A stretch of DNA of 64,000 bases from Glutinoglossum americanum (lineage: Eukaryota; Ascomycota; Geoglossomycetes; Geoglossales; Geoglossaceae), in NCBI GenBank assembly GCA_020080175.1, contig JAGHQL010000006.1, positions 1 to 64,000 on the forward strand. The letters are read 5' to 3'. Below the pieces are notes generated by a model, which searched no databases, was not told the origin of the DNA, and saw only the letters and a list, made by a program, of their open reading frames with translations. Positions 2,594 through 56,200 of this stretch are shown in pieces; positions within the stretch are counted from its first letter, which is position 1; every line of letters begins with the position of its first letter. A program made the translations under genes and the position numbers.

Positions 2594-5194
2594 ATGGCGG
2601 GGAAATTGGTAATTGGTGTTGACCTCGGAATGACGTTTACAGGTGAAGCTTCCTCTACATGGTGCACTTCCTCTGCGCTCCTGCGCAATTGGTCCGCAAG
2701 GAGGGGAGGGAGAGGGAGGGGAACGCATTCTAATGTCCCTAAGACCAACATCGTTGACGTTCATCACATCATATAGGCGTCGCCTACTCCACCCAAAACA
2801 TGGTCCGACCCAACGTGATCCAGTCCTGGCCTGGAAAGTCCGGTCAAGTCGAAAACAAAGTCCCTACCATCGTAACTTACACCGACAACAGCGTCTCATC
2901 CTGGGGTTTCCTCTGTCAATCCGACGACGACTACCTCCCCAACAAACAAACACGGCAATGGTTCAAGCTCTTCCTGGACCCTCGGGTTCTCAGGGACTTC
3001 AGCAACCAGCCCGACGTACCCCGTATCGCCGCCGAAGACGTCAAAAGATGGTACCTCGACTTCCTGCAGAAACTGTACCAGCATATCGAGACCACGATGC
3101 TGAGTAAGGTGCGCAGGGCGGTGTGGATGGGCGAGGTGGAGTTCATCTTTAGCGTGCCGACGACATGGACGAGGCAGGGGATGATTGAGGATTATAAGGA
3201 TATCATCAGGCGAGCGGGGTTTGGCGAGGGAGGAAATAGCCACACCGTTGATATCGGGTTGACAGAGGCGGAGGCGGCGGCAGTTTCCACAGCGAAGGGA
3301 AGCGTGAATGCATTTGCAGTGAGTTGCTATCCTCTCTGCTTGGGCGCTGGAGGAGGTTATCGGAGATGTCTTCTAACTCGAGCCCGTTTGCTATAGAGAG
3401 GAGATACGCTACTGATATGCGATGCCGGCGGAGGTACTACGGTATGTTTAATCAAACAGACCCAATCCTTTTCAGTACACTCTCTTAGAGCCGAGTACTT
3501 ATAGCCATAACTCTATAGGATATTGCGGTCCTCGAAGTCACCTCTAACGAACCCCACGAACTTAAACAACTCGACATCGTTAATGGCAAGGCCCCCTCCC
3601 TTTCCTTCCCTGAGTCAACCCGGACCTCTCCTTCCTAACGATCCTTAACAGGCGTCGATGTCGGCTCCACTAAGATTGACGAAGAGTTCGAAGGATCCGT
3701 CGCACAACGGCTCGGGGCGCTTAGCGGCCATGTCTCCTTTGACAGTGACGCTGCAAGCAAGATGACGCGCGGGCAGTTTCAAGCGTTCAAGTGCGCGTTT
3801 GGACCGGAAGGAGATTTTCCGACATACTCGATTAGGGTACCCGGCATCACGCCTTATGATTATACGAACGAATCGTTGAGGGTTGTGAGGGGTAAGATGT
3901 ATTTTGCAAGGTTTGTACATCTAAGATTCCCTATGTTTTGCTCCTCGGGAGAGGAATTGACGGGAGAAAACAGGACGGAGTTGCAGAATATTTTCGACAC
4001 CCAGGTCAGGAGGATCTTCAGACTTATCGATAAGCAGCTTCAGCAAATGGCGACCAAGATGCCTGAGAAGCAAATTGTAAGTTGGGTTGTCGGTTTGATA
4101 TCCGTGCCCCGGAAGATGGAGACCGAAAAAGTAGGAAGGCTGACATCATTGGAATAATAGTCTTTCCTCGTCCTCTCCGGCGGCCTAGGCAGCTCGTCCT
4201 ACGTCCAACAATGCCTCCGGACACGCTACATAACCAGCCACTCACCCCCCTCTAACGCGCAGAGGATGGAAATACTCCTCTCTGATGAACCGTCCGTTCT
4301 TCCCTCACCATCCCTCAATATTGAGAAAAGATTCCTCAGCAGTCTCCCGCGCTAACAATCATCTTACAGCCAACTCGCCGTCGCCAGAGGCCTTGTAATG
4401 GATCGTATCCAAAAGCTCACTCTCGGTCAATCAATTATGGAAACGCGTTGCTGCCGCGCAAGCTACGGTATGGTCTGCATGGAGCTCTACAACAGCACGA
4501 AGCACATCGGAATGGAGACGTGGACGGATCCACTGGACCAAAAGATGTATGTCAAGGAACAGATTGATTGGTTTGTGAAGAAGGTACGCGTCCCCTGTTC
4601 TTTTATCTACTTTAGGAAAAGAGGATGGGTATAGGCAAGATGGACGGGAAGATAACAACACCGTCGCTAATTATACGATTCACAGGGCCAACCGGTTCAC
4701 ACCGACCACCTCATCGAACACCAATTTACCCGCAAAATAGAAAGCGGCCGCCCACGTGAAACCTGGAAAACCCGCCTCGTATCCTGCAACGCCGACTCAG
4801 CTTTCCTCCCCACCACCTTCCACCCAAGTTCGTTTCCCCTCCCCCCTACCCCCCCCAAAAAAAAAAAATCATCCGCCCTAACCCCCTAACTTTTCCAACC
4901 ATAGATCGCTCAACCGGCGCCACTCTCCTCTGCGTCCTCGAATCCGATCTAACCCACCTTCCCCTAACCTGCTTCAAGAAGAAGAACCGGCACTGGTACA
5001 ACCGCGGCAAGGTCTACCACCGCGCAAATTATTCCGTTAGGGTCGTGATCGGGTCGGCTGACATACGGTTTGAGTTGTGGATGGACAGGGTTAAGTACTC
5101 GAAGGATAGGCCGATTAAGGTGGAGTGGGGACCAGCGGAGAAGGGGGAGGTGGAAGTGGGAGGGAATGAGGGGGTGAGGTGGGAAAGCTACTAG
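2594..5194 (+). CDS. Hsp70-family ATPase, HSPA12-like
   Basis: Ten exons are inferred: 2594-2642, 2777-3318, 3397-3441, 3529-3585, 3652-3910, 3974-4076, 4161-4291, 4370-4583, 4686-4827 and 4905-5194. The actin-like ATPase fold shows its three nucleotide motifs in order: phosphate-1 GVDLGMTFTGVAYS at the N-terminus, phosphate-2 DAGGGTTDIAVLEV across exons 3-4, and the adenosine motif LSGGLGSSSYV in exon 7, followed by DEPQLAVARGL. Spacing and motif variants match the HSPA12-like branch found in filamentous fungi, not the classical DnaK/Ssa chaperones. No C-terminal EEVD or organelle signal is seen, so a cytosolic protein is inferred. The usual first Thr of the phosphate-1 motif is Met. The intron at 3586-3651 appears to be GC-AG. 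The intron at 3911-3973 is 63 nt and in frame, so retention would not break the product. The substrate is unknown. Confidence 0.88.
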
Positions 5195-11093: not shown

Positions 11094-13864
11094 ATGAATG
11101 GAATAGCAATGAAGACACTCGAACGATCACCATCTGCTTCCAATTCAGCCGTGCGAGTGCTCAATCTCCTCACTCCGAGTAATCACTCCCGTGCTAACTC
11201 ACAACCTGACGAGCCTTCAAGCAGCACCACCAGCGCCTCTCCAGGTAGCCTTGGAACCCGGAGAGCGCGATGGAGCCTTAGGCGGAAAAGATCCAAAGGC
11301 GATAAGGTATGCATATCCCAAGCGGTAGCTCTACTTCGGAGGTACTCTTTGACTAAATATCTTATACAGAAGCCCGAGGACACGGATATCAGCGCCGCCC
11401 CTTCTCCTACAGCGCCTATCGAACTAGTAGCTGACACCGAGCCGATCGAACTCCCAGGTTCAGAGCCAGGTCTCGAGCCAGACTCATCGACCGATTTCCC
11501 AATCTGGGCGGAGTGCAATGAAGTTGCTAAAGTTGTGCCGGGTATAGAAAGAAACCTCGCCCGTCTGCAATTCCTCCAGCAGAAATCCGTGGACGACCCT
11601 GATACGAGGCCTAATACCAGTATTAATAGTGAGCGTTATGCGCTCAGCTGCAAGACCATACTGCTCTGTCGCCAGTCTATCATACGGCTCAAGGAAGTAG
11701 CACGTAGTCCTGCGAGCGCGGGGTTCAAGTCGACGATGATCGAGAACAGCCGCAACCTGCTGCGTTCGGTTGAGCATTTCAAGAATGCTGAAGACTTTTA
11801 CGCAAAAAAGCTACGCGGCCAGATGATCGCCCATTACAAAACTATCATTCCCACAGCTAGCGAGGCTGAAGCGCAAGGCGTGTTTGATATATCGGCAGGC
11901 CAACTAGGATTCACCGCTGTAAGATATGACCTCTCGGCTGCTCTCTGGGTTTTTACAAACTGATCTCTCCGCAGTTTCGCCAAAGCGCGGATGCCCGTGT
12001 GAGAGCTGCGGCTCAAACTATCGGTGATCGTTACACAACTATTAAGGAGGTCCAAGAAAGGATCACTGAGCTCACGGAATTTCTGCAAGATATTGGGCAA
12101 TTGCTTGCATCCGTGCTCCAGCGTCCGCAACCCAATCAACTGGGCGATGAAAGCAAAATAAATATCTATGAGTCTAAGATAGACCCGGAGGGCGATATAA
12201 TCTTGGATTTTGCATCTGGCGATATGAACTACTCTCGGCTGCAATACCAAGTCTCTTCGCATATGTTATCCAAGACGTCGCCTCTCTTCGCGATGGCATT
12301 GAAGATCTCGCCGTCACGGACGAATCCATATATTCCGAAAGGGATGGAGGGTCAGCTGCCTGTGATACCGCCGGTACGGGTGCCCGCCAAATCCGCTACT
12401 ATGATATTTATGCCTCAGAAGGAGCACAGTATTAGCGCGTTGGGCATTGTGCTTTGCGCAGCCCATATGCGCAATGACAAGGTGCCACGCTCCATATCAT
12501 TCCGGGAGCTGGTTGAAGTCTCTCGGGTTTGCCAGCAATACCAATGCATAGACCCGGTCTCACTTTTCGTGGAATTACTCTGGCTGCCGCAATGGCAGGA
12601 ATGGATCGGCCATCCAGGATATGGAGACTTCCTCCTGATCAGCTATGTGTTTGGACACGCTCGAATATTTGAGACGGCCTCTAAAAGGATTATACTACAG
12701 TTGCGTGGCGATCCGGACGTTATGGAGGATAAAATGTTGCCTCCGCATGTGAGGGAACGCCTGCGACAGATCAGAGCTGCCATTCTAGCACGCATACTAG
12801 ACTGTTGTAGGAAAACCATGCGCCAATACTTACCCTCGCCACCTCTAACATCCGAGTCGAACCGACAGGATGGAGCTGACTGGAGCGCAAACAATAAAAG
12901 ATGGAGTGTGGGCACCTCTCTAGAGAGCAAGCTTCATTGTCCCAAGACGAATCGACAGTGTGACGCAAATAACCTAGGGTGGTTGATGTTGATATTCAAC
13001 GAACTCGGAATACTCGAGAGCGTTACGGATCCCTGTCTGAATCTTGCACAAGGTTCGTGGTTCTCGGGTAGCCTGGGTGGCCTCGTTGCCAAACTGTGCG
13101 CTGTGCCAGGCGCTGCCAAGGTTCACGACGGCGACTGCGACTATGCTCCAGCGTTTCGGAGTAAGATATGTGAGGTCTTCAATTCAATCAAGGGGCTGGA
13201 CCTCTCAGAAGTTAACGAGAACTATCCGGAGCGCAAGCGCTCCAGTGGAGTTTTCGGCGAAATGCCGAGGACCACAGATACTCTCAGCAGGAGAAGTAGC
13301 TATGCTACCCCGGACGAAGAAGAGGGCCCGGAACCAGCGATGGCCGGAGATTGTGATGGACACGAAGGGGCAGCTGAGCGATACGAACCTGTTTATTCAG
13401 CTAGTGAAGACCGCCTGCCAGCCCTCTCACAAAATAGCCCAGGTCGGAGCAATGAGGACCTATCTAGTGAAGTCACTTTTCAAGCTTCCGAGGCCGACAC
13501 ACACTCAATTGCCTCTACCGAGATTACTCTCCCAACCGAACGGCCTAACAGCCCAAGTCCGAGCATCTCCACTCTTGAGACCATACAGAGTGGTATTGTA
13601 TCTCCAATCAGACCCAGACAAGCGAGTATACCCTTAGCGGATCACGAGACTCTCAGCCACCCTGCTCAAGTGGATCCCAGGGGCGTGAATTCGGAAAGAG
13701 ACAGGAGCCAAGGCACGCAAGAAGATGAGAAAATCTTCTGGGCGCATAGGGCCGCTAAGGAGATCGTCAAAGTCGAGGACAAAGAATTAATTATATCCCA
13801 TAAGCATACTATAAGGATCGGGGAGGAGAGAGGCTTGCCGCCTATCCGAGATCCCCCTACGTGA
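11094..13864 (+). CDS. Qa-SNARE (syntaxin)-like N-terminal region fused to a BTB/POZ domain
   Basis: Three exons are inferred (11094-11306, 11370-11918, 11975-13864), about 883 residues. The 63-nt first intron is in frame (GTATGC...TACAG); the second restores continuity from QLGFTA to FRQSADARV. Residues ~114-303 follow the layout of Sso1/syntaxin: a helical Habc-like region, then ENSR, then YKTIIPTASEAEAQGVF (Sso: YMIIQPEATEDEV), then YTTIKEVQERITELTEFLQD matching the first half of a Qa-SNARE motif. The motif stops near the central layer: Val301 stands where syntaxins have the layer-0 Gln, and no transmembrane anchor follows. Residues ~327-480 (GDIILDFASGDMN, VSSHMLSKTSPLFAMALK, then a helical part) read as a fungal BTB/POZ domain. 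The C-terminal ~240 residues are Ser/Pro/Glu-rich and look disordered. SNARE kinship and BTB are recognised by eye; the role is unknown. A chance helical similarity is the main alternative. Confidence 0.78.
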
Positions 13865-15971: not shown

Positions 15972-18900
15972 CTAGAGGCCAGGATCAAGTTCGTTCGGGC
16001 TCCCTTCGAGGAACAAGTCGAAAGTCGGTCCATTCCACCACTCTCCATCGATGCCCTCTTGTTCATCGAGTACCATGCTCGCAGGGGTGTCCTCAATCTC
16101 GCTGGGCGGCGGTTGTTCTTGTTTTCCGAGGCAGTCTTCCGAGTTGAGAATGCTGGCTACGTCGGTAGGATCTTTGGGCCGGTGGTGAGAAGAGTCATTG
16201 GTGGAGCTGCTGTTGTCGCGCTGGTGGCGCTGGTGGCCAAGGGCAGTGCCATTAGTGGTGGGAGAGAGGGGCTTTGATAAGCTGGCTATTCGAGCTGCGT
16301 TGAGACGTGAGTGATGGGGGCGCTTGCGTAAATCAATTAGCGTATGTAGGAGGAGACTCATACCCGTGTCCCTGGAGTACACCCGTGAATGCAGTGACCG
16401 CAAGCCTTTTAGGCAACGCTTGGCGGTCGCACTGTATGAAGCCATCTGAGCCAAACTATCCTGACAATCCCTCCATGATTCTTCAAGGCTGGCCATATTT
16501 AAAAACTCCTGGATCGGAATACAGACATTGGCCATGATTAGCACCATCCCAGCCGTGTGAGTATCTAGGATTCGTTAGTAGAGGCTATACAGAATACTTC
16601 TAACCCTTCTTAACGCTTACAGAACATGTTATACCACCACGCCCCGGTCGTGTTCATGTTCTTGTTGATGATGTTGATGAGCTCCATTGCTGCAGTGACA
16701 CAAGAGACGGCGCAGCGGGTCGCAAAAAATGAAGTCATTGTGTCCTCGGATTTGTTGGCTAGTCCGTCCGCCGACGGTTTACCTGTTGGCTCCGCAGCCA
16801 GCGATGCCGAGCTGGAGCTGCGGCAGAGTTGAGTGAAAATTGGGCGATATAGGAGTATGCGGAGGTGAAGGTATCTGGACGGGTTAGAATAAGCCAATGA
16901 AGAGTAGAGGGGAGCGCCTATTACCTCGCGTACAGAACGTTTGCCTGCCGCCTAAGAGTATCGGGGTTCTCTCTATTCAGCTTTGCTGTGCACGTTTCCG
17001 ATTTCGGGCTTTTTAACAATGCCGGTGTTTCTGAGTAAAACTTCATCAACGCCGAGTCTAGACTCATGATCATGTCGAAGCCTTTGGTGTTCTGGAGGTG
17101 CTCGAAACCAACCGGGTCAGAGTTCCCTCTCCCGGTGCCATTGATCCATGGCTCATAGACGCTAGAAAGGATGTTTCCTAATATTTTGTAGAGTTTGATG
17201 GCTTCCACAAAGAAGTTCGATCGTGAGAATTCATCAGCAGGCTGAACGCAATTAAATGCTCCAGGCTCCAGGTACTCGTCGTCGATTGCTGTTGGTAAAG
17301 GGACAGAAGATTTATGATATGTCATCGTAGGCCGTCCGAGCGTCATACTTACCACCCTGACAGAAGAGTTTATCAACATCACTTCCTAAGTTAAGAGGTC
17401 TTATGGGGAGGAGGGGGTTATACATATCTAATGTCACACATCCATACCAGGTTCGTCTTCGCACTTCCAGTTCCAATGACGGCAGTTGTTTCTTGTTATC
17501 TTCCAGATGCAGTCCTAGACCTTGTGCTACTCTGCATGCAATGCCAATGGAATTCCAGCATCTCGTTGGATATGATGTGCATTGGAGATACTGGGCTACT
17601 AGTAGCAATGTTTGCACCAGTGAGATACTACCGTTGTCCAACACATCTAGCCGCAAGAGGTGTTTTGACCTTTGGAAAAACATATTTGATGTTGCCGACC
17701 GTTTATCGATCGGTATGTCAGAAAATTCGCACCCGATCGCAAAGATGGCGTTCAAGGCGCAGAAGAAGATGGACATGTCCGGGTCCCCGTCAATGGAATT
17801 GCCAAGACCTGCTCCCGGAGAGGGTACTAGCTTGATGTTCTCGCGATCAGAGGCCCAGAGCTTTCTGTATGCTAGGGAAAATGTCGGCTCATGCAAAAAT
17901 GGGTATAGAGTGGCACATGTCGTCCAGTATCGCGAGATAAGGTGATCCGCGACATGTCGAGGGGGAAGAACAAAGTCCTCCAGCTTTAGACTTGGGCTTT
18001 CTTCGCACAACAAAGCAAGTGGGTTAGGCTTCCTTGACTTATCTCCCATGTCGTCGAAAGCGACCGTAGGTGGTCGTTGAGCTGATTGGGAAGAAATGGG
18101 ATCATCCGAATTTTCGGTCTTCCAGGAAATAGCTTCGACCAGCTGCTTCGTGAAAGGTGCAGTGGGCTGGCCATCGAACAAATGCCCGCCTCCACCTGGA
18201 TCATTCCCGTTTACTAGGGACAGGGCTCCCAAAGGGCCGGTAGGGCTTTGGTTGTCGACGCGATCTTGGTCATCCAAAGCCTGCAGTGATGCGGGCCGAA
18301 CCTCACCCATGTCTAGATTCTCGGGGGCCGTGTTCACGCCATTCTGAAGCATGGGAAGAGGGATAGGCTGCGAGGTCGTTGTGAGGCTGCGGGTTGGTCC
18401 ATGTCCATTAGAAGTTGCCCCGCCAGGGCGAGCTTGTGGCCCATAATCTCCAGGTCCATTTTGCGTGGGCTGCCACGGAGGGGCAAGGATATGGTCAACG
18501 GAGAGTGGGCGATTGAGAAGGGTATGTGAGTGGTCTTGACCCGGTGAGAAGCGAGGTGGTGATTCCGTCATATCAACAACGTGGCTCGTAGGCGGCACAT
18601 GATTATTGGAACCCGGAGAAGATCCATCAATTCTGTATCGGGTTTCAAGTTCGCGGATTCGATTGTGCAGAGCCTCGATAGACCTGTTGTTCGGGGCACG
18701 ATAAGTGAAAGTCCAAGGCACAAACGGATAGCTTGGAGAGAGGAGGAATATGGGGCAGCAAACCCATCCGCCACAGACACTCTCATCGTCTCCGTCTTAT
18801 ATATACACTGCCCCGGCTGACGCGAGCGGCGCTTGCATGACCCACAGATAGGTCTCTCGCCATCACATCTCGTCTTGCGCTCCCGACATCCATCGCACGC

Positions 18901-19300: not shown

Positions 19301-20387
19301 GAGCCAAATCCGGAATGGAGTATCGTGCAATATATAATATCCACGACACAATGTGCGATGCCCATCACACAACTTGGGGTGCGGAGTGTGGTTGCTCGGC
19401 TGCGGAGGCGTGCTTTCGACTTCCGGGAAGTCGGGCTAGGATACGGGGTTGCCCGAGAGAACTTGCGTATGCAGATATGTGGGGCCGTCGCCAAATTACG
19501 ATGTCAATCGGACTAAAATATAAAACGGACACACAAGGCTTAAATATGTAGGGCGCAAACGGCGCCTTTTGACTGAGATATGCACTTCCCTAATAGAAGA
19601 GAAATTAGTCTATACTCAGAAAGCGGGAAGTCACTACAGGGGTGGATTCTGATGCGTATCTAACTGAATCGATACAATATATCCGGGCTGCCTTTCCTGT
19701 CACATGATTTCAACACTTACGCCTTGGTTTCGCGACGCCTTCCCGAACTCCGAAAATTGAGGCATTTATCCGGCAGAAAATATTCTTTGCACCTATAACC
19801 CCCGCCCCACCCATCTTCGCTCATAGAAATCCGGTCTTCTCCACAACTAAGCATTCTATATCACAGTGCCTTCAAATATCTGCACCTCTATCCTTTCTCC
19901 AGCCGTTGCGAGCTTCAGCAACGGTGTTTCGTGCATCTTTTATTCAATGGGCTTTTCTTCCATGCACTTCGCCCTTGGAATACTCTTAGTGCTTATAACA
20001 TGGCCCAATAGACCTTTCGCGCCCTTCTACCTATTCTAACACGAAAGAAACCTAACTAGTTACTGATACAGCAAAGTCACCACATGAATGATATTCCGTG
20101 AATCGATCTATCCCATCGTAGGAAATCGTGATGTCGCCGAAAGTCCCTAACTCAAATGGAGTTGCCGGAGTGCCTTAGAAATCCAGGTATATCCTAGATT
20201 CCTAGATTGGAGAGACCCTCTAAAATCAACAGTCCTTCGGCTTTGGGGATAACCCAAAGGGTAAATGGTGGGTCAGGCGCAAGGAGTGCTTCCAACCGGT
20301 TTATAAGGGTGGGGGGTATTCAGCCGTGGGGGCTATCTATCGTTTCGGGCAAGGAGAAGAGGGAAAGCACGGTGCAAAAAGACAAAA
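19301..20387. other. upstream region of the Zn2Cys6 gene
   Basis: AT-rich DNA without a supported gene. It is the promoter side of the minus-strand regulator and ends at the 3' terminator of a 5S rRNA gene. Confidence 0.5.
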
Positions 20388-20506
20388 ACATACGACAGAG
20401 GGTATTCCCAGCTCGTCACCGACGCCAGTACTAATCCTCCGATCTGTAGCTTATGTAAGGCAGAGCGGACGGGATGCCCAGTATTCTACAGTCTGTGGTC
20501 GTATGT
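20388..20506 (-). rRNA. 5S ribosomal RNA
   Basis: A 119-nt sequence on the minus strand begins ACATACGACCA and ends TCGTATGT, so its termini pair as in 5S helix I. Internal segments such as CATCCCGTCCGCTCTGCC, GATTAGTACTGGCGTCGGTGAC and CTGGGAATACCC match fungal 5S rRNA. A T-rich run (TTTTTG, then TTTTTG again) follows directly as an RNA polymerase III terminator. It differs by one base from the copy at 30144-30262 (ACCACAGAC here, ACCATAGAC there). Isolated 5S genes outside the rDNA repeat are the rule in many filamentous ascomycetes. Confidence 0.95.
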
Positions 20507-29240: not shown

Positions 29241-30143
29241 TTTGCGAGGCGGTTTCAGGCTATCATCGTTCGAGACCCTTCATCTTGCTCGCTCTGGAAC
29301 TTTTCTCCTTTCCTCTTTATCAAACTAGATAGGAATCTCAGTAGTTATCTATTATTCGAATATTGGGACGCTTACCTAAATACCACGACTGCTTGGGTTT
29401 ATTTGCTCGGATGCCACAAAACGCTTACTGGAATACCACGACTCTCTAGCTTTGACCCGCCCATCAAATATGTCCCCCACCCTTCTGTCATTCTCCAGGG
29501 GCATGCGTAATGGTTATGGGGGCCTCCCCCGCATCCTGACACAGTGGTGGTCCCTCCCAACATATGCCGTGATACAGCGGTGGAACTTAGGGGCCCGCCC
29601 ATGACTATGAGGTCCTCCGCATCCTGACGCAGTGGCGGTCCCTCCCAGCATGTCCCATGATGCAGCGATGGCACTTAGAAGTCCATCCATGGTTATGGGG
29701 GTCCATCCTGGATATATACCCTGACGCAGCAATTAGTCTTCGCTTAGGAAGATCCGTGCGGTTTTAGGGGCCCCTCAACTCCAGCGACGTTTTGCATGCT
29801 CGATCTGTGTGGTAAGCTTTTGTTGGATCTGAGTCCCTGGCATTTGGGGTTTCCCCCAAGGGTCTGGTTCCTGCTCTAGCTGGTCAAACTGACGTATCGC
29901 ACTCCCGATAAAGCGGGGTAAGGCTGGCAAATGATAAGTCGTTCCAAATTCTAGGTCCCCGATGGTGCCCCTGACATCTTATAAGCTCTTAGACCACTTT
30001 TCTATTTCACTTGCGAAAGAAAAAGGAAGCGCGCCCTGCAATAGCAAAAAGAAACTACTTAGGAGGCGTTAGCGTGGGGTCGTTTAGCTCCCCAATCGGC
30101 GGGTTGAATTTATTCCTCCGCACGGAGACCTAAAAATTCAAAA
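29241..30143. other. intergenic region with tandem repeat
   Basis: No supported gene. The left half carries the repeat at 29513-29735. The right end abuts the terminator of the second 5S gene. Confidence 0.5.
29513..29735. repeat. diverged tandem repeat, about 88-bp unit
   Basis: Two near-complete units and one partial unit share GGTTATGGGGG/GACTATGAGG, GCATCCTGACRCAGTGG, GGTCCCTCCCARCAT and GAYRCAGCGRTGG. CTGAC anchors lie at about 29536, 29624 and 29721 (spacings 88 and 97). Many differences are transitions, consistent with old repeat decay. Confidence 0.65.
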
Positions 30144-30262
30144 ACATACGACAGAGGGTATTCCCAGCTCGTCACCGACGCCAGTACTAATCCTCCGATC
30201 TGTAGCTTATGTAAGGCAGAGCGGACGGGATGCCCAGTATTCTACAGTCTATGGTCGTATGT
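30144..30262 (-). rRNA. 5S ribosomal RNA
   Basis: A 119-nt minus-strand gene, identical to the copy at 20388-20506 except for one base near the 5' end. It begins ACATACGACCATAG, the usual start of fungal 5S rRNA, and ends TCGTATGT. It is followed by TTTTTG and later TTTTTAGG as terminator. Flanks of the two copies are unrelated, so the copies are dispersed, not part of a larger duplication. Confidence 0.96.
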
Positions 30263-53265: not shown

Positions 53266-56200
53266 TTAATTGTGTTGGTAAAGCGTCAACCTATTAGGAA
53301 TTGGGGATCATTAGCTCAAAGCCCGGATTTACGGTAAATATAATAGGCCTTTAGTTGACGACCGCTCACCGAGAAGACCCTCCACAATACTCCAGCTTAT
53401 TACCCTTGCACAACATATTACAGCTCGACTGCGCGCTGGCAAGCACAGCCCCGGCATTCAGTGTATTTCCATACCAGCATTCCCTTGAATATTCGATCCC
53501 AGCGTATTTGTAGCTTGAGGCAAAGGAGAGGCAGAGCTCGACGGTCATGCTGTCGTTGGCGTAGAGGCTCGGGAGTGCGCGGGCACCGGAGGGCTCTTGG
53601 ACGCAGCCGGAGGAAGTTGTGTTTTGGTAGAGGGTGAAGTTTGCATTACCAGGGACGACGCTAGGGGTTGGCGTCCCTGTGGATGTGGTGATGCTTGTAG
53701 AAACTGTTGTAACACTTGTTGAGGTGGCTGCCGAGGCAGTCGTTGAGCTGTCGCTGGCGGCTGTTGTAGGGATCGTCGTGCCTGTGCTGGAGACAGTTAC
53801 GGAAGGTATTGAGCTAGCGCTAGGATTTGAAGTCGTCGATGTTGGAGACAACACACTGAAGGGGTCATCTGTCAGCGATGCCAACCGCAGAGGTACAGCG
53901 GTATCCTTTTTACCTAGAACTTGAGGAGACAAGAGACTTCTTTTGGTACAATGTGAGCCTATTTTCTGTTAGATAGCCACCCCTTTTCCTGAAAACCAAC
54001 TTTCTACTTACAAGCTCCCTGCACCACAAAATTCTGAAGTGTTCCCCTTGCAGGCCATATTACAACTAGACTGAGACGGAGCTACGGATGCGCCTGCATT
54101 GAGAGTGTTTCCGTACCAGCACTCTCGACCGTATTCAACACCGGCGAATTTGTAGTTCCAGGCAAAGGAGAGGCATAGTTCGATTGTCATGCTGTCACTT
54201 GCAAATAAGTTCGGTAGTGCTCGTACTCCGGTGGGCTCCTGCACACATCCTGCAGAACCACCACTGTAGAGTGTGAAGTTGATATTGCCAGGAACAACTA
54301 CAGGCGGCCCGGTATATGCTGCAGCGGAGCTTGATGTCGCTGATGAAGATGTAGCTGAGGGACTTGATGACGTTGTGATACTAATGGCACTATCCGTGGG
54401 AGTAGTTATCGTAGTACCGTTCCCGGCGGAAGTGGTCGTCATGCTGTTATTCGCAGCTGGAGTTGCTGTAGTAGTGCCACTCGTAGTGGTCGGTGCTGTG
54501 GTAGTATTGTTTGTGGCAGAAATTGTTGTCACGCTGGCTGTATCAGATGTTATTGTCATTGTGTTATCTAGAGTAGAAGTTGCTGTAGTGGTGTTTGCCG
54601 TCGGAGCCGTTGACACAGTGGTATTTAGCGCTGACATCGTTGTGAGTAAGGATGTCGTGGAGGAGGTTACAGTTGTACTGGCTGTAGTACTTGGGGGATT
54701 CTTCAAATATAAGTCAAGGTAGCCGCCGCTACCGCAGTATTCAAAGCCATCGCCTTTACAGACCATCGTGCAATGAGATTGGCTTTGATTAGTCGACCCG
54801 GCATTAAGCGTTTGACCACACCAGCACTCCCTATAAACATTGTTAAGACCTCTCCTCTAGACGAGAGCGGGGGGCCATACCTAGAGTACTCTACACCAAC
54901 ATATTTGTAGTTCCAACAAGTCGAAAGACAGAGCTCAATAGTCATCGAATCGGAAGCTAGAGCGAGGGTTGATAGAGCACGGGCACCTGTAGGTTCATTG
55001 TAGCACCCAAGGAGAGTAAAGTTAACGTTGCCTGGAACGGCGATAGGACCCGTAGGAGTGGCTGACGATGACGTAGCTGTGGCGGTGGTGGTTGAACTGG
55101 TGACAGTACTCGTGGAGTTCGGAGGCGTGTACCTAGGTCACGTCAATGCAAAGTGCTAGATATATGGGGCACATGGGCAAGTCTCCAGGCAGTTCATCTC
55201 AGCGAGTAGGTTCAGGGGCCAGGCCTGTAATATATGAATCCCGTTAAGCGAGCCATATTCTGGAGGCACAAAATTGCTAGGTCAGTGTTAAGGGCATACT
55301 TATTCAAAGATTGTGATAGGGATTCAATTCCTAGGAAGACTCTCGGGGGGCATGCCATCCAGGGTGATTGTCATGGGAACTACTCCAGGTCCTCACTCGT
55401 TGGGGGTATGCCCCTAAATGGTTACCATAGGGATCCCTTCCGCGCAGTACTCGGGGCTATCACACTTGCCAAGCGGTGGATATAAGGTTCCTTCTCGAGC
55501 ACGGGCACCAATCTTCGCTACCAGGTTGGAAAACTCTTGGCCTCGTTATTCTATTCTTCAGGTGCGGATAACTTCTCTAGAGGTTCTTATATTGCGGTTC
55601 GACTGCGGAGCGTCCTGGGCCTTACGGGCGAGATGAACCGCGTGGAGACTTACCGAGGGAATGGGGGTTATACCGAGTAGCGTCGTAATAGATAGATATG
55701 AACCCGCCATTTCCACCACAAGATTGCGAGCCATCTCCTGCGCAAGCAAAGGTACACTTCTGGGCACTCTCTGGGAAAAAGAAGGCTGACGGTGGGGGCG
55801 TGTTGCCACACCAACACTCGATTTTGTACTCTACAGAAATGGTCAGCGGCAATTTAGAAGGTGAGAAGGATGAGATCAACCTGTTCCTGCGAATATATAG
55901 TTTCCACCTAGGCACTCAGTCTGACACTGGCCATTCTCATTGGTATTAGGATTATTAAATTCCTTAGGTAAGAGTCGGCCATTCGTTCCATCTTGGTAAC
56001 AACCAAGGAACCGGTATCGCGTGGTGCCATCTGGTAGGAGAGGTCCGACCTTACGGTCGACAACAGTCCCAGTGATCGAAACTACATGAATCCCAAATGT
56101 TAAATCGTCGGTATTTAGGGTCCAGGAGTCGGCAATCGTTTGGTCAAGTATGTTAGGAGCTTCGATAGCGGGCTGGAAGATCACCCCACCAGTAGCACAA

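What the first reader, a model, noticed from the sequence alone, without database searches (positions are those of the whole stretch)
11094..13864. Syntaxin-like region fused to a BTB/POZ domain
Residues ~114-303 can be laid on Sso1/syntaxin from Habc through the IIPTASEAE linker to RITELTEFLQD, and a BTB domain follows at ~327. I know of no described family joining a Qa-SNARE scaffold to BTB. It could be a soluble decoy that binds SNARE partners while BTB brings dimerisation or a Cullin-3 ligase, linking membrane fusion to ubiquitylation or signalling (inference).
Basis: partly seen in the sequence, partly recalled or inferred. Interest (0 to 1): 0.82.

Follow-up and report, generated by a model that had tools for sequence, protein, structure and literature searches.

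The report
Syntaxin-like bundle fused to BTB-like domain
A fungal gene appears to join a cut-down copy of the membrane-fusion protein syntaxin, keeping its regulatory bundle but not the part that drives fusion, to a probable BTB protein-interaction domain, which could link secretion to protein tagging or scaffolding.

Summary
The gene is real: three exons (11094-11306, 11370-11918, 11975-13864, +), 883 aa, two GT-AG phase-0 introns. Residues ~109-301 match the Habc-linker-H3 unit of yeast Sso1/Sso2: the five best of 8 PDB hits are Sso1/Sso2 (E 6e-4 to 7e-3); 0 of 15,000 shuffles reach its score against an Sso1/Sso2/syntaxin-1A profile; 44 of 184 identities to Sso1, 0 of 1000 local shuffles as good. 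SNARE layers -7 to -1 are all hydrophobic, in the only such register of the protein. The motif then stops: V301 replaces the zero-layer Gln, P305 follows, and there is no membrane anchor. So it is not a fusogenic SNARE but the HabcH3 unit that in Sso2 binds exocyst Sec3. The BTB-like part follows ~20 residues on, in the same exon. BTB identity is the weaker half: Pfam, PDB and single-sequence AlphaFold fail; support rests on a recalled, unverified fungal sequence. Best reading: a soluble pseudo-syntaxin BTB adaptor engaging partners of Sso; partner and CUL3 link are inferred.

The parts
11094..13864 (+). Whole gene: exons 11094-11306, 11370-11918, 11975-13864 (stop included); 883 aa
   Evidence: open spliced frame, GT-AG introns, all phase 0; ORF list
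11253..11306 (+). Polybasic stretch near the N terminus (residues 54-73, net +9 in 20 residues, runs into exon 2); possible membrane-lipid or nuclear signal, inferred
   Evidence: charge scan
11307..11369 (+). Intron 1 (63 nt, GTATGC...ACAG, phase 0)
11481..11861 (+). Habc-like three-helix region, residues 109-235; the Hc side (from about 185) is the part best matched to Sso1/2
   Evidence: single-sequence AlphaFold shows helices at about 115-124, 130-144, 154-183, 192-204, 214-230, 236-249
11862..11998 (+). Habc-H3 linker (residues 236-262), interrupted by intron 2; its GQ..F aligned to GQ..F of Sso1
   Evidence: alignments
11919..11974 (+). Intron 2 (56 nt, GTAAGA...CGCAG, phase 0), inside the syntaxin-like region
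   Evidence: best profile match spans the junction
11999..12124 (+). Truncated H3/SNARE motif (residues 263-304): layers -7 to -1 = I277 V280 I284 L287 L291 I294 L298; zero layer V301; +1 is P305, just after
   Evidence: layer mapping (layer spacing recalled); only 7/7 hydrophobic register in the protein, 15 of 5000 local shuffles have any
12179..12586 (+). BTB-like region, residues 323-458 (DPEGDIIL...YQVSSHMLSKTSPLF...RNDKVPRSISFRELVEVSRVCQQYQCID)
   Evidence: similarity to a recalled fungal BTB protein; no match in Pfam, one PDB hit at E 1.8
12323..12331 (+). NPY tripeptide (residues 371-373) in a proline-rich loop inside the BTB-like region; Sso2 uses two NPY motifs to bind Sec3
   Evidence: 885 of 20000 shuffles have at least one by chance; PMC9427108 passages
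12587..12847 (+). Region after the BTB core (residues 459-545), aligned (to 542) with the same region of the recalled fungal BTB protein
12938..13207 (+). C-terminal Cys-containing region (residues 576-665), no family assigned
   Evidence: no Pfam match; no similarity to the recalled BTB protein (417 and 360 of 3000 shuffles score as high)
13250..13861 (+). Low-complexity, probably disordered tail (residues 680-883)
   Evidence: composition

Best explanation
A soluble pseudo-syntaxin adaptor of a filamentous fungus. Shown here: the first third of the folded part resembles, beyond shuffled controls, the Habc-linker-H3 bundle of the exocytic Qa-SNARE Sso1/Sso2, from which it most likely descends. 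It lacks the zero-layer Gln, the C-terminal half of the SNARE motif and a membrane anchor, and it continues in the same exon into a fungal-type BTB-like region. Inferred: it cannot drive fusion. The bundle folds on itself in the closed-syntaxin manner and serves as a docking face for a protein that normally binds Sso. Of these I think Sec3 of the exocyst the likeliest, because Sec3 binds this very unit, mainly through Hc. The BTB-like region makes the protein oligomeric and/or joins it to CUL3, so that the bound exocytic regulator is scaffolded, sequestered from Sso, or ubiquitylated.
For: Sso1/Sso2 are the five best of 8 PDB hits, E 6e-4 to 7e-3. Profile of verified Sso1, Sso2 and Stx1A: 15.0 bits, reached by 0 of 15,000 shuffles (13,303 of them were scored at all). 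hhalign E 3.5e-4, reached by 0 of 450 shuffles. Semi-global alignment to Sso1: 44 of 184 identities, z 8.5, reached by 0 of 1000. Seven of seven layers hydrophobic in the register given by the alignment, the only such register in 883 aa (the residue set V,I,L,M,F was chosen after the seven residues had been seen). Motif end at V301/P305. Highest 19-residue Kyte-Doolittle mean 1.24, so no transmembrane helix. H3 and BTB-like part in one exon. BTB-like part 43.1 bits to a recalled fungal BTB, reached by 0 of 6000 shuffles. HabcH3 (Sso2 36-227) binds Sec3 mainly through Hc (PMC5267525 abstract and passages). TNFAIP1, a BTB (KCTD-family) protein, targets the SNARE SNAP25 for ubiquitylation (PMC10722859 passages), a distant precedent.
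Against: No Pfam Syntaxin, SNARE or BTB hit at E<=10. For the syntaxin half that miss says little: Sso1 itself scores only 29.6 against a Syntaxin cut-off of 26.7, and the SNARE model starts matching at Sso1 residue 226, beyond the retained part. The best Pfam scores for H3 are to crescentin (E 9e-4, below its cut-off), i.e. generic coiled coil. hhalign probability is 37%. Foldseek of the Habc model is not significant (best CorA, E 0.11; first syntaxin at rank 9, E 1.1). The reversed query also drew PDB hits near 1e-3. Exon 3's H3 alone is weak against Sso1 (6 and 13 of 3000 shuffles reach it), and one local shuffle equalled exon 2's score. No homologue was found, in collections of viruses, bacteria and archaea, so conservation of the join is unknown. 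Nothing here tests any partner, CUL3 binding or expression. The Sso2 residues that touch Sec3 were not named in the passages seen, so they could not be compared.
Confidence: 0.4

Rival explanations
1. The helical part is a generic antiparallel bundle or coiled coil that resembles Sso1 by composition and heptad pattern only; the protein is an ordinary fungal BTB-like protein with a helical N-terminal extension.
For: Pfam gives only weak helical hits below cut-off (CreS_N E 0.0017 and 9e-4; DUF6099, FlgK_D1, MitMem_reg weaker). Foldseek top hit is CorA. The reversed sequence also drew PDB hits at E 1.6e-3. Stx1A alone does not clearly beat shuffles.
Against: Full, local and heptad-preserving shuffles do not reach the Sso profile score (0 of 15,000). 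The alignment to Sso1 is collinear over 184 residue pairs including the non-repetitive linker. The five best PDB hits are one family. The layer register given by the alignment is the only 7/7 register in the protein.
Confidence: 0.2
2. Right anatomy, other use: the bundle binds the SM protein Sec1, or Sec9/Snc N-terminal halves, as a dominant-negative inhibitor of SNARE assembly, and the BTB region only oligomerises it.
For: Layers -7 to -1, where SNARE zippering starts (recalled), are kept. A SNARE, SEC-9, is under surveillance in fungi (title of Heller 2018 seen in reference lists).
Against: No zero-layer Gln and no C-terminal half. In closed Sso the H3 helix is packed against Habc (PMC5267525 passages).
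Confidence: 0.25
3. A vestigial or decaying fusion: a truncated sso duplicate captured upstream of a BTB gene, translated but with no selected role for the bundle.
For: Low identity to Sso1 (44 of 184) and loss of half the SNARE motif.
Against: Frame open over 883 codons with two clean introns; all seven layers kept although identity is low, which suggests constraint on the core.
Confidence: 0.1
4. Two genes wrongly joined by the gene model.
For: Intron 2 falls inside the syntaxin-like region; no RNA data.
Against: H3 and the BTB-like region share one uninterrupted frame with about 20 residues between them; the Sso alignment runs across the intron.
Confidence: 0.04

Closest known systems
Sso1/Sso2, exocytic Qa-SNAREs (PDB 1fio, 5m4y, 7q83)
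   Same: Habc-linker-H3 order and length, 44 of 184 identities to Sso1, all seven layers -7 to -1 hydrophobic
   Different: No zero-layer Gln, no layers +1 to +8, no transmembrane anchor; a BTB-like protein is attached instead
Fungal BTB/POZ proteins (PF00651)
   Same: Order of motifs (GDxIL, VSSxxLSxxSPxF, RNDxVP, Y.C) and following region as in a recalled member
   Different: No Pfam hit; proline-rich loop at about 370-395; syntaxin-like bundle in front; C-terminal third unassigned
Soluble SNARE-like regulators (tomosyn, amisyn, complexin; recalled, no call)
   Same: Soluble, SNARE-derived or SNARE-like segment without fusion ability
   Different: Those carry R-SNARE-like or short helices; this carries a Qa-type regulatory bundle with the motif cut at the zero layer
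TNFAIP1 (BTB/KCTD) acting on SNAP25 (PMC10722859 passages)
   Same: A BTB protein coupled to a SNARE and to ubiquitylation
   Different: There the BTB-containing part binds the SNARE; here the protein itself would be SNARE-derived. The passages name CUL3 as the general partner of BTB adaptors; I saw no test of CUL3 in them, and none exists here
HeLo / HeLo-like / Goodbye four-helix domains of fungal cell-death proteins (PMC9815663 passages)
   Same: Helical bundle at the N-terminal side
   Different: No such family among Pfam matches at E<=10; similarity is to syntaxin

Membership tests
Qa-SNARE (syntaxin) | Sequence homology to syntaxins over Habc-linker-H3 | tested here: met
   weaker for Ha-Hb; not reached in Pfam
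Qa-SNARE (syntaxin) | Three-helix Habc fold | tested here: inconclusive
   single-sequence model pLDDT 66.6 with helices in the right order; Foldseek not significant, though the highest TM-score by model length among the 50 rows listed of 213 is Sso2 5m4y, 0.43
Qa-SNARE (syntaxin) | Complete SNARE motif, layers -7 to +8 | tested here: not met
   -7 to -1 present, +1 is P305 and no pattern follows
Qa-SNARE (syntaxin) | Zero-layer glutamine | tested here: not met
   V301
Qa-SNARE (syntaxin) | C-terminal membrane anchor | tested here: not met
   maximum 19-residue hydropathy 1.24; C terminus IRDPPT, no CaaX
BTB/POZ | PF00651 match above cut-off | tested here: not met
   no hit at E<=10 whole, in pieces or with the loop left out; a recalled fungal member itself only just passes, 23.0 vs 20.5
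BTB/POZ | BTB fold | tested here: inconclusive
   model pLDDT 39.9, no usable match
BTB/POZ (fungal type) | Collinear similarity to a fungal BTB protein | tested here: inconclusive
BTB-CUL3 adaptor | CUL3 binding | not testable with these tools
   none
HeLo-type cell-death domain | Pfam match to HeLo, HeLo-like, SesA or Goodbye (model names recalled) | tested here: not met
   no such family at E<=10 for the whole protein or residues 109-307

The most novel reading that the evidence does not exclude
A ubiquitin-ligase adaptor whose substrate-binding domain is a stolen syntaxin: the Sso HabcH3 bundle, cut exactly at the zero layer so that it can be recognised by Sso's regulators but never fuse, is joined to a BTB domain. 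By imitating Sso, with its Hc face and an NPY motif, it captures the exocyst subunit Sec3 (or Sec1) and hands it to CUL3, giving the fungus a switch on polarised secretion or cell fusion.
Probability: 0.12. Interest if true: 0.85.

Novelty: new variant of a known kind. Interest (0 to 1): 0.55.

Why it matters
If right, it shows a SNARE regulatory bundle used apart from fusion, as a recognition module in an adaptor protein. It would be a molecular mimic of syntaxin inside the cell's own secretion control. It would give a direct handle on how filamentous fungi limit exocytosis at hyphal tips or during cell fusion, and on what the little-characterised fungal BTB families (recalled) bind. If the bundle proves generic, it is an ordinary fungal BTB-like protein with a helical extension.

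Tried and rejected
Own genome: none held, so paralogues elsewhere, the fungus's own Sso and its CUL3 could not be sought; tblastn of the protein against the window itself found no second copy. Relatives in viral contigs and genome contigs: none, with the exon-3 protein or with a syntaxin alignment (these are pattern-seeded searches of viral, bacterial and archaeal sequence, so they say nothing about fungal orthologues). Pfam on the whole, on parts and on the BTB-like part with its loop left out: no syntaxin, SNARE or BTB. PDB search of the BTB-like part: one hit at E 1.8; a recalled fungal BTB protein finds nothing there either, so that miss is uninformative. AlphaFold of the BTB-like part: unusable. 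NLR/cell-death domain: no Pfam hit, and 0 occurrences of 'syntaxin' or 'BTB' in two papers on fungal NLR domains ('SNARE' once in each, in the references; find only). NPY motif as proof of Sec3 binding: rejected, chance about 4%, and it lies within the BTB-like region, not at the N terminus as in Sso2. Literature for a syntaxin/SNARE-BTB join: searches returned no paper; one review (listing only); (at least 3 of 4 terms) returned 44 and 31 papers, 20 of each listed, with no title or abstract start describing such a join. Two searches on fungal BTB proteins in general returned none. This is one open-access library and not proof that none is in print.

Full report
What was checked. The region encodes one spliced gene on the + strand: exons 11094-11306, 11370-11918 and 11975-13864, 883 aa, introns of 63 and 56 nt with GT-AG ends, all in phase 0. 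Six splice combinations near the two introns keep the frame open (880-889 aa); they differ only at intron 1, outside the domains. The short introns, a fungal transcription-factor domain, WSC domains and two scattered 5S rRNA genes fit a filamentous ascomycete (inference).

Syntaxin-like part. PDB phmmer of residues 109-307 gave 8 hits at E<=10; the best five are yeast Sso1 and Sso2 (E 6.3e-4 to 7e-3), the sixth a dynactin subunit at 0.11. The reversed query gave four designed PPR-repeat chains at E 1.6e-3 to 5.6e-3 with no single stretch passing, so that E-value by itself is not enough. I therefore built tests on sequences verified against PDB chains. An HMM of Sso1, Sso2 and syntaxin-1A gives the region 15.0 bits (10.9 when the whole protein is scored); none of 5000 full, 5000 local and 5000 heptad-preserving shuffles reaches it (scores were reported for 4428, 4392 and 4483 of these; best 12.4). 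Single-sequence phmmer: Sso1 20.7 bits and Sso2 18.3, again reached by 0 of 15,000 (one local shuffle came to 20.2 with Sso1); Stx1A alone 6.1, reached by 8, 6 and 9 of 5000 each. hhalign: score 32.4, E 3.5e-4, probability 37%; reached by 0 of 450 shuffles, best 23.1; reversed 12.7. Semi-global alignment with local-shuffle control, against the HabcH3 stretches cut out by me: Sso1 44 of 184 identities, z 8.5, 0 of 1000; Sso2 38 of 186, z 6.9, 0 of 1000; Stx1A 35 of 192, z 4.5, 3 of 1000. Taken apart, exon 2 against Sso1 is reached by 0 and 1 of 3000 shuffles and exon-3 H3 by 6 and 13 of 3000; exon 2 against Stx1A is at chance (430 and 678 of 3000). So the halves are weak alone and the case rests on their collinearity across the intron.

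Layers. The phmmer alignment puts Sso1 V221 on L298. Carried along the standard SNARE layer spacing (layer positions recalled), layers -7 to -1 fall on I277, V280, I284, L287, L291, I294, L298; the zero layer falls on V301 instead of Gln, and +1 on P305. A scan for seven residues of the set V, I, L, M, F at this spacing finds one register in the whole protein, starting at 277, which is the one given by the alignment; 15 of 5000 local shuffles of the region hold any. The set was chosen after the seven residues had been seen, so this is supporting, not blind, evidence. The protein has no transmembrane-like segment (best 19-residue mean 1.24). So the SNARE motif is cut at its middle.

What the retained unit does in Sso. 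From the abstract and found passages of PMC5267525: Sso2, crystallised as aa 36-227, forms an antiparallel four-helix bundle, Habc 36-155 and part of H3 189-223, and binds the Sec3 PH domain with extensive contacts through Hc and some through the SNARE motif; Sec9 displaces Sec3 from Sso2. From found passages of PMC9427108: two NPY motifs at the Sso2 N terminus also bind Sec3, and the stretch beside one packs near the C-terminal tip of H3. The present protein keeps that unit and ends it at about the same place. Its Hc-linker-H3 is the stretch best matched to Sso. It has one NPY (371-373), 67 residues beyond the end of H3 in a loop of the BTB-like part; composition predicts 0.046 NPY per protein, and 885 of 20,000 shuffles have one, so this is a hint only.

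BTB-like part. Pfam finds nothing at E<=10 in the whole, in pieces or with the loop left out. PDB phmmer gives one hit at E 1.8, to a chain named SAKe6FR. AlphaFold without relatives gives pLDDT 39.9, and Foldseek of that model is meaningless. A fungal BTB protein recalled from memory, which Pfam accepts as PF00651 (23.0 bits, cut-off 20.5), aligns over residues 323-542 with 52 of 224 columns identical, E 4e-16; phmmer gives 43.1 bits against at most 8.8 in 6000 shuffles. That sequence is unverified and was typed after reading the query. I think the BTB label right (about 0.85), but it is a recalled lead, not a test. The C-terminal third did not align with it. The recalled filamentous-fungal Sso gives 72.1 bits and an alignment over residues 108-298, Ha and Hb included; it is accepted by Pfam as Syntaxin and SNARE and finds Sso1 in PDB at E 7e-36, but carries the same caveat.

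Structure of the Habc exon. AlphaFold of residues 109-254 alone: pLDDT 66.6, pTM 0.61, helices at about 115-124, 130-144, 154-183, 192-204, 214-230 and 236-249. Foldseek: 213 matches at E<=10, none at 0.001; CorA first (0.11). Of the 50 rows shown, syntaxin or syntaxin-scaffold chains are at ranks 9, 13, 17, 31, 43 and 47, all at E above 1, and Sso2 5m4y has the highest TM-score by model length (0.43). This is consistent, not decisive.

Interpretation. Shown: one open gene model; a Sso-like HabcH3 unit with the SNARE motif ending at the zero layer; no anchor; a BTB-like protein continuing in the same exon. Inferred: it is a non-fusogenic mimic of Sso that binds one of Sso's regulators, Sec3 first among them, with the BTB part for oligomerisation or CUL3. 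Confidence: bundle homologous to Sso about 0.8; BTB about 0.85; adaptor for an exocytic Sso partner about 0.4; Sec3 in particular about 0.2.

Novelty. Both halves are known kinds; their join, and a Qa-SNARE motif cut at the zero layer and joined to BTB, did not turn up in the literature searches that bear on it (one open-access library, listings only, the last two capped at 20 rows of 44 and 31). Orthologues may well sit unannotated in sequence databases that could not be searched here.

Noticed in passing
20387-20506 (-) and 30143-30262 (-): Two complete 5S rRNA genes about 9.6 kb apart, with no other Rfam rRNA hit in the window: dispersed 5S genes as in many filamentous ascomycetes (recalled).
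   Followed up: no
29525-29691: Nearly two copies of an 88-base unit, 81% matched; no coding context examined.
   Followed up: no
2758-4154 (+): Two ORFs that look like fragments of a fungal Hsp70-like ATPase (recalled pattern); no Pfam hit at 0.001 for either piece.
   Followed up: partly
17315-18796 (-): Fungal-specific transcription factor domain (PF04082, E 8.9e-24).
   Followed up: partly
53369-54856 (-): Two WSC-domain ORFs (PF01822) with Ser/Thr-rich stretches, perhaps one multi-WSC surface protein.
   Followed up: partly
12938-13207 (+): C-terminal region of the same protein with spaced Cys and His (C576, C583, H638, C642, C653), possibly metal-binding; no family found.
   Followed up: no
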